Program-made: the position numbers and the translations under genes
Notes under the pieces: generated by a model
Seen by the model: the letters and a program-made list of their open reading frames with translations, nothing else
What the model was told of the DNA's origin: nothing
Databases searched by the model: none
Source: Bacilli bacterium
Lineage (GTDB): Bacteria; Bacillota_I; Bacilli_A; RF39; UBA660
DNA length: 64,000 bases
Direction of reading: 5' to 3'
Assembly (NCBI GenBank): GCA_017525035.1
Contig: JAFXTH010000005.1
Location: forward strand, 64,025-128,024
In this document: one piece after another, positions 23,600-31,957 of the stretch
Position numbering within the stretch: the first letter of the stretch is position 1
Layout: the number at the start of each line of letters is the position of its first letter

Positions 23600-23621
23600 T
23601 AAAATAAAGAAGGTGTATATA

Positions 23622-24407
23622 ATGAATGAAGAAGAGACATTATATATCAATTCAGATATATTAGATAAATTCATGTCTGGAGTTAATAAATGTTCTTTAA
23701 AGATTGGTGACCATATCGTTTCATCAGAGAAAGACTATAAAAAACTTAAAGAAAATGATTTATATGGTGATGGTTTCAACAAAGTAGAAAAAGGTATGAA
23801 TGAAACTAATCATACAATGATTAACTGTAATAAAGTTAATGAAGAATTTTTAACTAAATATATACTTCTTGAAGAAAAAGGTAAAGAAATAATTGATGAT
23901 TTATATATACCTAATGATCTAAAAACAGGAAATGAGTTTTCTACGTCTTTATTTAATCAAACAAATTTAAATAAAGATGATAGCAATTCTATTAAAACGT
24001 ATATGATGAGTGATAGCAAAACAGAAGATGAATATAACGTTGTAAAAGAAGAAATAGTTAATGATAACAAAAACCTAGATTATGATGTTGAAATAGAAAA
24101 CATAGACGTTAATAAAGAAAATATTAATAATTTAAATAAAGAGATTAGTAGTGAAGCGAAAGCAGATGAAGAAGTCACAGTTAAAGAAGCAAATCTTGAC
24201 TATGTAGAAAATAACAAAGTATTAGATGATAACGTTGTAGAAAATATAAATGTATCTAAAGAAGAACTACATGATGTAGACAACAAGATTGTTATAGATA
24301 ATGAATTTACTACAGAAAATCAAAATATTACTAATGAAGATATTCCTTTAGATGAAATAGAAAAACAGGATGAATCTTTAGAAGCTGAAGAAGTAGAGGA
24401 TGAGTAA
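23622..24407 (+). CDS. Acidic Esx-cluster protein with long disordered tail
   Basis: A 261-residue protein, first gene of a four-gene operon with two WXG100-like proteins. Residues 1 to about 100 look like a helical hairpin of Esx size (ILDKFMSGVNKCSLKIGDH ... KGKEIIDDLYIP) but no WXG is visible. The remaining 160 residues are very rich in Asn, Asp, Glu and Val and are probably disordered. No signal peptide. It could be a secreted substrate or a chaperone of the cluster; function unknown. The start is ATG 22 bases after the -10, behind AAGGTG. Confidence 0.6.
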   Translation: MNEEETLYINSDILDKFMSGVNKCSLKIGDHIVSSEKDYKKLKENDLYGDGFNKVEKGMNETNHTMINCNKVNEEFLTKYILLEEKGKEIIDDLYIPNDLKTGNEFSTSLFNQTNLNKDDSNSIKTYMMSDSKTEDEYNVVKEEIVNDNKNLDYDVEIENIDVNKENINNLNKEISSEAKADEEVTVKEANLDYVENNKVLDDNVVENINVSKEELHDVDNKIVIDNEFTTENQNITNEDIPLDEIEKQDESLEAEEVEDE

Positions 24408-24409
24408 TT

Positions 24410-24715
24410 ATGAAGATAATTGTAACTTATAAAGAATTAGAAAATGTTTCTAATAATGTTAAAGAAAATTCTCACTTAATCGATGATCAATTAGATAAGA
24501 TGACTTTATTAGTAAATGATATGAAGAAAAATTGGCAGGGGGATGCAGCAGATATTTTTTATAATAGTATTGAAGCATATATAGAAAAATTGAGAAAGGT
24601 TCCTATATGCCATAGAAATATTTCAAGTATTATTAATTTCTTAAATAAAAACTACAATTCAATTGATAAAGAATTCGCACAGACACTAAAAAATGCGGTG
24701 GTAAATCATGAGTAA
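24410..24715 (+). CDS. WXG100-family (Esx-like) protein
   Basis: A 101-residue helical protein with W42-Q43-G44 in the middle (KKNWQGDAADIFYNSIEAY), the size and motif position of the WXG100 family. These form four-helix dimers exported by type VII (ESX/Ess) systems. The start follows the previous stop by 2 bases and the end overlaps the next gene by 8 bases, so the partners are made together. Family call is firm; secretion is inferred, since no motor ATPase is in the window. Confidence 0.85.
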   Translation: MKIIVTYKELENVSNNVKENSHLIDDQLDKMTLLVNDMKKNWQGDAADIFYNSIEAYIEKLRKVPICHRNISSIINFLNKNYNSIDKEFAQTLKNAVVNHE

Positions 24716-25055
24716 AATAGTACTAAAAAATGAAAATGAATTTGAAGATTCAATAAAGAAATTAAATAATATTAAGGAAGAAATTGACAAAATACTTGAA
24801 TTGCAAAATAAAGAAATAGATAAAATAAACGATACAAGAGTATGGACAAGTGATGCAGAAAGAGCATTATGTTCAAAGTATAATTCGTTAAAAAATAATT
24901 ATACTGACATTGATGATTCCTTAAATAACTATATAAAGTTTATGGAAACAACTTTAGATAAATATAGAGGAATTGATACACAAAGAAATACTAACATAGA
25001 TGATAATCAAAATGAATTAAATGTTGTAACAAATAATAATATTGAAGAACAATAG
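24708..25055 (+). CDS. WXG100-like protein with WTS turn
   Basis: A 115-residue helical protein with RVWTSDAERALCSKY at residues 45-59: the tryptophan (W46) is in the WXG position but the third residue is Ser rather than Gly, an accepted WXG100 variation. A hydrophilic Asn-rich tail of about 20 residues follows the second helix. It overlaps the preceding WXG gene by 8 bases, the layout of EsxA/EsxB-type heterodimer partners. Confidence 0.75.
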   Translation: MSKIVLKNENEFEDSIKKLNNIKEEIDKILELQNKEIDKINDTRVWTSDAERALCSKYNSLKNNYTDIDDSLNNYIKFMETTLDKYRGIDTQRNTNIDDNQNELNVVTNNNIEEQ

Positions 25056-25066
25056 GCGGTGATTAT

Positions 25067-25978
25067 ATGGCGCTAGAAGACGATGATGAGGATTGGTACT
25101 TTTATCCGTGGCTAGATCCTAAAAATGATGGCAAAAAATTTACAAAAGAAGAAATAATAGCAGCATTTCCTCGTGCTGATGGAATAGGGTATGGAGTTGG
25201 AGAAACAGTTGATGGCGCTATTGAAGAATTAAAAGCACAAGGAAGGTATGAATACTCTGAAAAAGAATACTTAGATATGATCGACGAAAAGCTAGATCAT
25301 GCTAAGACACGAGTATTAGAGCATGAAGTATCTCCATATGATATGGATGGAAAAGTTCTTGATAGATTAGATACCATCAGTGATGATGAACTGGATGAAG
25401 TTATTGAAAATGATTTGATGCCAGTATTTATTAATAAACTTGAAGATATTAGAACATGTTTTGATGAATTTAATTCATTACGAAGAGATTGCCTAGATGT
25501 ATTATGCGGATCATATGCTAGTGTTAACAAAGAAGTGTTTGGAACAGTAAGTGAGGATATGAATGTTCTATACAAGTACATGATGGAATCAACACTTCCT
25601 GCAATTGATAAAATAGTTGAGTTAAAAGAAACTATTGAAGAACTTCACAAAAAGGAAAAAGAACTAGAAGAATTATTACCAAAAATAGAAGAGAAAGAAA
25701 AACATATACCATATAATGATTATGAATATGTAACATCAGAATCTGAATATCAATATAACTGGAATACATTACAGTATGAAAGACTTCCAAATGGTGGAAT
25801 TATTAAAATGTATAAACAAAGTTATTATAAATATTTAGAAGAACTAGATCGTATGAGAAAAGCAGCAGAAGAGTTAAGAGAAGACATTAAAAAAATAAAG
25901 GAAAAAGAAAGAGAAATAATAAAAGATATTAAAAACTTTGAAGAATTAAGATTAGTTTTTACTGATATTGTTGAGTAA
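25067..25978 (+). CDS. Coiled-coil protein of the Esx-like cluster
   Basis: A 303-residue soluble protein, last gene of the operon. An acidic aromatic N-terminus (DDDEDWYFYPWLDP) is followed by a helical middle (about 110-190) and a strongly charged coiled coil (about 195-300, rich in KEKELEELLPK and EELREDIKKIKEKE). No enzymatic motif, signal peptide or membrane segment. Its position after two WXG100-like genes suggests a larger substrate or an adaptor. Start ATG follows GCGGTGAT. Function unknown. Confidence 0.65.
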   Translation: MALEDDDEDWYFYPWLDPKNDGKKFTKEEIIAAFPRADGIGYGVGETVDGAIEELKAQGRYEYSEKEYLDMIDEKLDHAKTRVLEHEVSPYDMDGKVLDRLDTISDDELDEVIENDLMPVFINKLEDIRTCFDEFNSLRRDCLDVLCGSYASVNKEVFGTVSEDMNVLYKYMMESTLPAIDKIVELKETIEELHKKEKELEELLPKIEEKEKHIPYNDYEYVTSESEYQYNWNTLQYERLPNGGIIKMYKQSYYKYLEELDRMRKAAEELREDIKKIKEKEREIIKDIKNFEELRLVFTDIVE

Positions 25979-29823: not shown

Positions 29824-30171
29824 ATGGCATTAAGTAGACAAGGAATTGCAGCAGTAAGAAGCGGAGCAGGTAAAATTAGCAATTTAGCAACTAAAGTACA
29901 AGGTTCAGGGGAAGAATTAAGTACAATTTTAAGAGGAAATGGAAATTATCAATATTTTAAAATAGGTACTGACAAAGGATCACATGTTGATAGTAAATTA
30001 AATCTAACATTAGATACTTTGTTAGACAGATTAGTTCCTCAATTAAGTAGTATTCATACTACTTTAGAAGGTTTCTGTGCTAGACAAGAAGAAGAAAATA
30101 GAATTCTTGAAATGAGAGCAAGACAGCAAAGAGAACAAGCAAGTCAGCCTCAACAAGCACCTAGTCCATAG
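29824..30171 (+). CDS. Short helical protein with GNGN motif, Esx-like size
   Basis: A 115-residue protein of unknown function with no signal peptide. Two helices flank G38-N39-G40-N41-Y-Q-Y-F and a following GTDKG; the tail is Gln/Pro-rich. The next gene shares the motif (NGNGNFQIF..GTEKG) at the same residue numbers and the LVPQL/LVPQM helix. The motif sits where WXG100 proteins have WXG (W42 in the protein at 24410), so this may be a divergent or analogous hairpin family. TAGGTGAC precedes the ATG. Confidence 0.65.
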   Translation: MALSRQGIAAVRSGAGKISNLATKVQGSGEELSTILRGNGNYQYFKIGTDKGSHVDSKLNLTLDTLLDRLVPQLSSIHTTLEGFCARQEEENRILEMRARQQREQASQPQQAPSP

Positions 30172-30206
30172 TTTAAATATTTTAATAAGATGGGAGGAGA
30201 AGAAAT

Positions 30207-30521
30207 ATGGCAATTGATAGAGAAGGAATTACTTTAGGTAATGAATATGTAGCTCAATTGAGAAAACAAGCAGATGAATTTGCATCACTAAGCAGTGATA
30301 TAATAAGTTTTTTAAATGGAAATGGAAATTTCCAAATTTTTAGAGAAGGTACAGAAAAAGGTGATAGTATTTATAAAAACATTAATACTTGTGTAGATAC
30401 TATTGTGCAACAACTAGTACCACAAATGCAAAAAATAGGAAACACAACAAGCGGATTATTAGATAATCAACAAAATTATAATAAAGCAGATGAAATGATT
30501 GACCGCGAAATGGTTCAATAG
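30207..30521 (+). CDS. Short helical protein with GNGN motif, paralog of preceding gene
   Basis: A 104-residue protein with two predicted helices around G38-N39-G40-N41-F and EGTEKGDSIYKNINTCVDTIVQQLVPQM. It is clearly related to the preceding 115-residue protein, which has the same spacing from the start codon. No WXG, signal peptide or membrane segment. A strong GGGAGGAG precedes the ATG. It may pair with its neighbour as a heterodimer. Confidence 0.65.
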   Translation: MAIDREGITLGNEYVAQLRKQADEFASLSSDIISFLNGNGNFQIFREGTEKGDSIYKNINTCVDTIVQQLVPQMQKIGNTTSGLLDNQQNYNKADEMIDREMVQ

Positions 30522-30535
30522 GAGGAGGATGTAAA

Positions 30536-30895
30536 GTGAGTAATAATACATTTAATGTAACAGAATTTAGAAGTATCTATACAATGATTGAAGACAAAAT
30601 TAACAGTTTATCTTCAAAGTCTAACGAAATAGAATCACTATGTGCAAATTTATCAAGCTTAGTTGATTCAACTGACTCTAATTTATCAACTACTTATGCT
30701 AATCTTTCAAATACCATTTCAGTAGCAAAAAATAAAATTGTTGGTTTCTTAGATGACTTAGAAGCAGAAATGAAACTTTATGAAGCTAAGACAATCGAAA
30801 ATGAAGAACAAACAAATGCTGAGTTAAAAGATATTAATGCAAACATTGACGACATAGCATCTATCTTTAACAGTATAGCAGGAAAGAATGCGTAG
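30536..30895 (+). CDS. Helical-hairpin protein related to the tail of the next gene
   Basis: A 119-residue all-helical protein, Ser/Asn/Thr-rich, starting at GTG 30536 behind GGAGGAGG. From FNVTEFRSIYTMIEDKINSL to DDIASIFNSIAGK it aligns over its whole length with the last 120 residues of the next protein (FNANELTTIVGSLETTKTNL to DEISGLFDSIGN). Size and hydrophilic helical character are Esx-like but no WXG is present. Function unknown. Confidence 0.65.
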   Translation: MSNNTFNVTEFRSIYTMIEDKINSLSSKSNEIESLCANLSSLVDSTDSNLSTTYANLSNTISVAKNKIVGFLDDLEAEMKLYEAKTIENEEQTNAELKDINANIDDIASIFNSIAGKNA

Positions 30896-30905
30896 GTGAT
30901 TATAT

Positions 30906-31910
30906 ATGTCAGAAGCAGAAAGACAATGTAGAATTAATCATATAGACCATCAAACAGTTAAACATGATGATGAACAGGTAATAATGACAGACATTAAGGC
31001 AGATGAAACATATTGGTCTTACAATAATGTTACTGGAGGACATTACGAAACGACAGGATTTAGAAGAGTAAAAAATGAAGATGGCGGTTTTACAGATTAT
31101 TATCCAGATCATATACAAGTATTTAGCGGTAAAGGGTCAAAAGAACCTTCATATGAGCAATATCAATATGTATATGAGCAAAATGGTCAAAAAATTGTAC
31201 GTACGGAAAAACGCGTGTTGTGGAGTACTGGTGATACTAATAAACCTCGTACTACAATAACTTATTCTCAAATGAAAGAAGACGGTACAATCGGTGATAC
31301 TATTAGGACGGATACATATAACGACGATGGTCATCAAATACAATCTACCATTGAACATGGTGGCCTTGGTAATGAAAAAATAACATACAATTATGAATAT
31401 GATGATGAAGGCAAATTAATTCGTGAATTCTACGAGGAAGGCGATGACAAAAACATTGAAATCAATTATGATGAAACTGGTGAAAAAGTTTCAAGTAGAA
31501 CATATGACGCAGAAGGAAATGTTGTAAGATCACAAGTTGCTGAATCCATAACATTTGGTGGTAAAAAATATACTTTCAATGCCAATGAATTAACTACAAT
31601 TGTTGGTTCATTAGAAACAACAAAAACTAACTTATCAACTCAACTTATGGAGATTTCTGCTCAATGTAGTGAAATTGCAAGCCTTGCAAGTTCACATGAT
31701 TCAGGTGTAAGTAGTACTATGAATAATTTAGGAACTACTTGTGAAACTTGTAAGACTTTAATATCTCAGTTAATTGAAACTTTACAAACTGATATTAATA
31801 CTTACGTTGATAACACTATTGCCAATGAATATGATAATTCTAAGGAATTACAACAAATCGATTCTTCATTGGATGAAATTAGTGGTTTATTTGATTCTAT
31901 AGGAAATTAA
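30906..31910 (+). CDS. YD-like repeat protein with C-terminal Esx-like helical domain
   Basis: A 334-residue protein, last in the cluster. Residues about 40-210 hold tyrosine/aspartate-rich beta repeats (ITYNYEYDDEGKLIREFYEEG, TYDAEGNVVRSQ) reminiscent of YD/RHS or MORN-like antecedents. Residues about 213-334 are a helical domain homologous to the whole of the preceding 119-residue protein. In LXG toxins the helical secretion domain is N-terminal; here it is C-terminal. No toxin catalytic motif was recognised and no signal peptide is present. TAGGTGAT precedes the ATG; a terminator follows. Confidence 0.65.
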   Translation: MSEAERQCRINHIDHQTVKHDDEQVIMTDIKADETYWSYNNVTGGHYETTGFRRVKNEDGGFTDYYPDHIQVFSGKGSKEPSYEQYQYVYEQNGQKIVRTEKRVLWSTGDTNKPRTTITYSQMKEDGTIGDTIRTDTYNDDGHQIQSTIEHGGLGNEKITYNYEYDDEGKLIREFYEEGDDKNIEINYDETGEKVSSRTYDAEGNVVRSQVAESITFGGKKYTFNANELTTIVGSLETTKTNLSTQLMEISAQCSEIASLASSHDSGVSSTMNNLGTTCETCKTLISQLIETLQTDINTYVDNTIANEYDNSKELQQIDSSLDEISGLFDSIGN

Positions 31911-31934: not shown

Positions 31935-31957
31935 TGAGGTTATTAACCTCTTTTTTT
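31935..31957 (+). terminator. Rho-independent terminator
   Basis: GAGGTTA and TAACCTC stem with T-run. Confidence 0.85.

What the first reader, a model, noticed from the sequence alone, without database searches (positions are those of the whole stretch)
29824..30521. Possible new Esx-like hairpin family with GNGN instead of WXG
Two adjacent genes (115 and 104 residues) both carry GNGN[YF]Q.F..GT[DE]KG at residues 38-52, with helices on both sides and a shared LVPQ[LM] helix. WXG100 proteins of the same size have WXG at about residue 42. The match of size, motif position, paired genes and nearby true WXG100 genes suggests an undescribed relative or analog.
Basis: partly seen in the sequence, partly recalled or inferred. 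Interest (0 to 1): 0.7.

Follow-up and report, generated by a model that had tools for sequence, protein, structure and literature searches.

The report
WXG-less partner pair beside type VII ATPase
Two small proteins that looked like an odd twin pair are in fact one half of a new two-protein module that, in related gut bacteria, sits right beside the type VII secretion motor where the usual WXG100 partner proteins normally sit, so it probably does their job without the hallmark WXG motif.

Summary
Both genes are real paralogues (31% identity, E 2.6e-14) and match no Pfam, NCBIfam, PHROG or PDB family. In ten or more uncultured Bacilli genomes, every relative ('family A') lies directly upstream of a second, unrelated-looking helical gene ('family B', SEDSNLS ... 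YxxxTxxNE). The window carries A-A-B-(YD-like)-B as one operon, 29824-31910. In three genomes the A-B module lies beside the type VII ATPase gene essC (YukD-EssC-A-B; A-B-A-B-EssC; A-B-A-B-YukD-EssC). These EssCs lie on separate branches of the EssC tree, and close relatives carry WXG100-type genes there instead. EssC occurs in 11/11 module genomes against 204/386 in the bacterial family. Two of the three genomes with EssC-adjacent modules have no detectable WXG100. No relative was found in phages, plasmids or viral contigs. By profile comparison, A shows no homology to WXG100 and B only a weak trace. So 'works like an Esx/Lap pair of a T7SS' is well supported; 'is a WXG100 member' is not met. 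GNGN is not the family motif; FxxGTxxG plus a terminal FxxxQxxLN is. The partner of each GNGN protein is probably a B protein, not the other GNGN protein.

The parts
29824..30171 (+). A1: family A protein, 115 aa, GNGNYQYFKIGTDKG, C-terminal FCARQEEEN
30207..30521 (+). A2: family A protein, 104 aa, GNGNFQIFREGTEKG, C-terminal LLDNQQNYN
30536..30895 (+). B1: family B partner protein, 119 aa, STDSNLS and YEAKTIENE motifs
   Evidence: homologous to the C-terminus of the next gene and to the gene following family A in every relative
30906..31910 (+). X-B2: 334 aa, N-terminal YD-repeat-like region (residues 1-220) and C-terminal family B domain
   Evidence: (TIGR01643 17.9 bits, cut-off 15.8); N-terminal part has no relative in 193 family genomes
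31566..31907 (+). family B domain within X-B2 (cargo in front of the targeting domain, a reversed order)
31936..31950 (+). terminator-like stem with T run, end of the four-gene operon
24410..25055 (+). context: WXG100 gene pair of the same genome

Best explanation
Families A and B form a two-protein secretion module of a Bacilli type VII secretion system (EssC/YukD type). A is a small helical protein of about 95 residues and B a helical protein of about 110 residues. I infer that one A and one B pair to form a helical bundle that presents an export signal to EssC, as Esx pairs or Lap-LXG complexes do. B can carry cargo: a YD-like domain in front of it in the window, low-complexity tails behind it in G092 and G510. 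So B is probably the exported carrier and A its obligate partner. The window encodes two A and two B units in one operon, one B being a cargo-bearing substrate. Shown: A next to B everywhere, B-cargo fusions, adjacency to essC, EssC in all carriers, A-B in place of the WXG100-type genes beside essC. Inferred: hairpin fold, A-B binding, secretion, and which motif is the signal (FxxxQ in A, [YF]xxxTxxNE in B).
For: Profiles of A and B built from a few loci independently hit neighbouring genes in further genomes. G297: YukD-like, EssC, A, B. G345: A-B-A-B-EssC. G495/L115: A-B-A-B, YukD-like, EssC, then a DUF4176-like gene. EssC in 11/11 module genomes against 204/386 of the family. The three module-bearing EssCs are on separate branches; two are sister to EssCs flanked by WXG100-type genes, and the third (sister G273) groups with WXG100-flanked G092. 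G297 and G345 have no PF06013 match. B fused to other sequence in the window, G092 and G510. A and B distance matrices correlate, r 0.915, and fall to as low as 0.51 when paralogues are swapped inconsistently. Synonymous change exceeds amino-acid change in all four genes of the G103/G388 pair. No phage, plasmid or viral relatives.
Against: Only 3 of 11 modules lie next to essC; the window's own module does not (its genome's EssCs are on contigs C1 and C3). Most module genomes also have ordinary WXG100 proteins. No fold, complex or secretion was tested. Co-variation of A and B is also expected from duplication of the pair as a unit. The genomes are incomplete MAGs, so missing WXG100 genes may be assembly gaps.
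Confidence: 0.66

Rival explanations
1. A and B are Lap-like targeting factors that stay in the cell: they bind the helical domain of a cargo (here X-B2) and bring it to EssC, but are not themselves exported, as reported for Lap1/DUF3130 and Lap2/DUF3958.
For: Two small helical genes next to a cargo with a helical domain is the Lap layout (PMC9600955; PMC11217815). Lap1 has a turn motif and a terminal FxxxD; A has a turn motif and a terminal FxxxQ.
Against: B is itself the domain fused to cargo. The modules at essC in G297, G345 and G495 have no obvious large cargo beside them. No DUF3130/TIGR04197 match in A, and none above cut-off in these genomes.
Confidence: 0.2
2. A and B are divergent true members of the WXG100 superfamily that lost the WXG motif.
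For: Size, paired genes, slot next to essC; some B members keep a W after the SEDSNLS stretch; B against WXG100 profile probability 25-27%, reversed control 3%; weak ESAT6_2 hits in 3 of 18 B.
Against: A against WXG100 probability 2-7%, reversed control 9%; no PF06013 match in any listed A or B hit.
Confidence: 0.3
3. The module is unrelated to secretion; its closeness to essC in three genomes is incidental.
For: Eight of eleven modules are not next to essC.
Against: Three adjacent cases in separate EssC lineages in genomes of about 1.2 Mb, and EssC in all 11 carriers.
Confidence: 0.08

Closest known systems
WXG100 / Esx pairs (PF06013, EsxA/YukE)
   Same: about 100 residues, two adjacent helical genes, slot beside YukD-EssC, helix-break-helix profile
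   Different: no WXG motif, no PF06013 match, A has no detectable profile similarity; pair is always two different families in the order A then B
Lap1/Lap2 partners of LXG toxins (DUF3130/TIGR04197, DUF3958)
   Same: two small helical genes with a cargo; conserved turn motif and aromatic-xxx-polar motif at the end of the second helix region
   Different: FxxxQxxLN instead of FxxxD, turn FxxGTxxG instead of DxxTxxxGN; no match to TIGR04197; B itself is fused to cargo
TslA-TlaA1-TlaA2 reverse-order lipase system
   Same: cargo in front, helical targeting domain behind (X-B2 in the window), small helical partners in the same operon (PMC10730906)
   Different: cargo is YD-like rather than a lipase; the targeting domain is family B, not LXG-like by any match; partners precede rather than follow the cargo
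T7SSc-T7SSj variants
   Same: minimal clusters of an EssC-type ATPase with a YukD-like protein (PMC11217815)
   Different: the survey states that all novel subtypes contain a WXG100 protein (TsxA), although none could be pinpointed for T7SSi; G297 and G345 show none here

Membership tests
WXG100 (PF06013) | sequence match to the WXG100 profile | tested here: not met
   no PF06013 hit listed for A or B members in hmmscan; hhalign A 2-7%, B 25-27%
WXG100 (PF06013) | WXG motif in the interhelical turn | tested here: not met
   absent in all 17 A; a W in some B at a shifted place, without a consistent WXG
WXG100 (PF06013) | antiparallel helical hairpin | not testable with these tools
WXG100 (PF06013) | encoded with an EssC/EccC ATPase | tested here: met
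   11/11 genomes; adjacent in three
WXG100 (PF06013) | exported by the system | not tested
   needs experiment
Lap1 (DUF3130 / TIGR04197) | match to the family profile | tested here: not met
   no TIGR04197 hit in A and none above cut-off in 11 genomes; the DUF3130 search gave no control signal and is uninformative
Lap1 (DUF3130 / TIGR04197) | DxxTxxxGN and FxxxD motifs | tested here: not met
   A has FxxGTxxG and FxxxQ (17/17 have the Q motif)
Lap1/Lap2 | encoded beside an LXG-domain effector | tested here: inconclusive
   window: beside X-B2, not LXG by profile; G510: an LXG-like-looking ORF and a DUF4176-like ORF within 6 kb, judged by eye
Phage tail / virion protein | homologues in phages | tested here: not met
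   no relatives in viral contigs, phages, plasmids

The most novel reading that the evidence does not exclude
The A-B module is a WXG100-independent substrate/partner pair that has replaced the WXG100 pair at the essC locus at least three times within one family of uncultured Bacilli, so that some bacteria run a type VII system with no WXG100 protein at all.
Probability: 0.4. Interest if true: 0.75.

Novelty: new variant of a known kind. Interest (0 to 1): 0.6.

Why it matters
WXG100 proteins are treated as one of the two universal parts of type VII systems (PMC11217815). A module that sits in their place without the motif, and without detectable homology in one of its two proteins, makes it testable which feature EssC really reads: the WXG turn, the aromatic-xxx-polar motif at the end of helix 2, or only the helical pair. 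It also gives annotators two unlabelled families, in gut bacteria whose secretion systems seem little described.

Tried and rejected
Single-protein searches of Pfam, NCBIfam, PHROGs and PDB gave only chance coiled-coil matches. PDB profile search: ESAT-6 at E 0.4-0.5 for A and HP0062 at E 0.024 for B, too weak and mixed with coiled coils to count. P1-P2 heterodimer: set aside once family B was found. Phage origin: rejected. Family search of DUF3130 across the phylum rang nowhere, not even in controls, so it shows nothing. First genome-contig scan with P1/P2 found nothing. Weak family A hits inside long unrelated ORFs at E 0.001-0.01 were dismissed because the profile of B found no partner beside those fetched.

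Full report
Observation. The two ORFs are as described. They align without gaps over about 100 residues, share GNGN[YF]Q.F..GT[DE]KG at 38-52 and LVPQ at 70-73, and hit each other at E = 2.6e-14 in the whole genome, 1.25 Mb in 24 contigs. They match no described family: chance-level coiled-coil hits only in Pfam, NCBIfam, PHROGs and PDB, alone and as a family.

A second family. The next gene (30536-30895, 119 aa) is homologous to the C-terminal 112 residues of the one after it (30906-31910, 334 aa), E 8e-17. Distant relatives of the GNGN proteins in G109 and G103 are each followed at once by a gene of this second kind. I call the first kind A and the second B. Profiles of A and B made from five sequences each then hit neighbouring genes in G092, G297 and G345. 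Later profiles did so in G388, G495, G510 and G162 and the same layout is read in RUG591 (L116). In G273 a B is present; an interrupted A-like stretch appears to lie just upstream of it. G103, G345, G388, G495 and RUG591 carry A-B-A-B. In the window the order is A-A-B-(X)B in one operon closed by a terminator-like stem at 31936-31950. So the partner of a GNGN protein is most simply a B protein.

Conserved features. Across 17 A proteins the fixed or nearly fixed points are F45, G52 and Q88 (numbering of the second window protein), that is FxxGTxxG in the turn region and FxxxQxxLN near the end; GNGN is not general. Across 18 B proteins the most conserved stretches are SxDSxLS and [YF]xxxTxxNE; some B members have a W after SEDSNLS, for example EWDNMALAF and DWEGLSAAF. 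Averaged helix propensity shows two amphipathic helices around a central break in A, B and WXG100 alike. Synonymous change exceeds replacement in all four genes between G103 and G388: dS 0.27-0.78 against dN 0.02-0.20.

Link to type VII secretion. In G297 the order is YukD-like, EssC (1537 aa), A, B. In G345 it is A-B-A-B-EssC. In G495 (L115) it is A-B-A-B, YukD-like, EssC, a 199-aa gene, a DUF4176-like gene; YukD-like and DUF4176-like are read by eye, not by profile. A full-length EssC is present in 11 of 11 module genomes, against 204 of 386 genomes of the family; if carriers were random, 11 of 11 would have a chance of about 0.001. In more than a dozen of the other fetched EssC loci a WXG100-type pair or gene lies near essC instead, and no essC locus has both immediately adjacent (that WXG100 profile was built from this clade, and loci with neither were also common, partly because flanks were short). 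The EssC tree puts the three module-bearing EssCs in three places: sister to WXG100-flanked G086 (support 1.0), sister to WXG100-flanked G162b (0.998), and with G273 and WXG100-flanked G092. So the module came to this slot more than once. A PF06013 search finds nothing at all in G297 and G345; these are drafts of 82% and 94% completeness, so this is suggestive only.

Cargo. B is found fused: behind a YD-repeat-like region in the window (NCBIfam TIGR01643, 17.9 bits against a cut-off of 15.8, E 0.0033), and in front of low-complexity repeats in G092 and G510. The window's YD-like part has no relative in 193 family genomes, which fits a fast-changing cargo but does not prove one. The order cargo-then-helical-domain resembles the TslA lipase (PMC10730906).

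Homology tests. Profile-profile comparison of A with WXG100 proteins of this clade gives 2-7% probability, below the 9% for the reversed profile. B gives 25-27%, against 3% reversed. So B may be a distant WXG100 relative, while A is either an analogue or too diverged. Neither meets Lap1's profile or motifs.

Distribution. No relative was found in viral contigs, phages or plasmids. Searches at order and class level found the family only within one taxonomic family of uncultured Bacilli; named records come from bins titled Lapin (perhaps rabbit) and RUG591 (perhaps rumen) (the sources are my reading of the record titles).

Reading. The best explanation is a WXG-less Esx/Lap-like pair serving EssC, with B as carrier and A as partner. 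The association with the type VII system is well supported; fold, binding, export and signal motif are inferred. First-reader verdict: the hunch of a type VII relative or analogue holds, but the motif, the partner and the homology need correction.

Noticed in passing
window 23613-25978: WXG100 locus: 264-aa acidic protein, two WXG100-type proteins (24410, 24708) and a 303-aa helical protein; a second type VII-like gene set about 4-5 kb from the finding.
   Followed up: partly
G000 C1:65167-69633 and C3:4187-8386 (L119, L120): The window's genome has two EssC genes on other contigs. One is followed by YukD and a WXG100 pair; the other has two small helical genes, one with YWLG and one without W, in divergent orientation.
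   Followed up: partly
L122:1190-3019: Next to EssC in G109, two tandem large ORFs share an N-terminal region NIDFAYALQSLRSMNQYKTNFLELMGDIGGD...; possible further type VII substrates of an unlabelled kind.
   Followed up: no
L062:1558-3690: About 4-6 kb from the G510 module, a 390-aa LXG-like-looking protein, a DUF4176-like protein and a 222-aa helical protein on the opposite strand, a likely effector locus.
   Followed up: no
window 30906-31565: YD-repeat-like domain with no relative in 193 genomes of the family; possibly a short Rhs-like cargo.
   Followed up: partly
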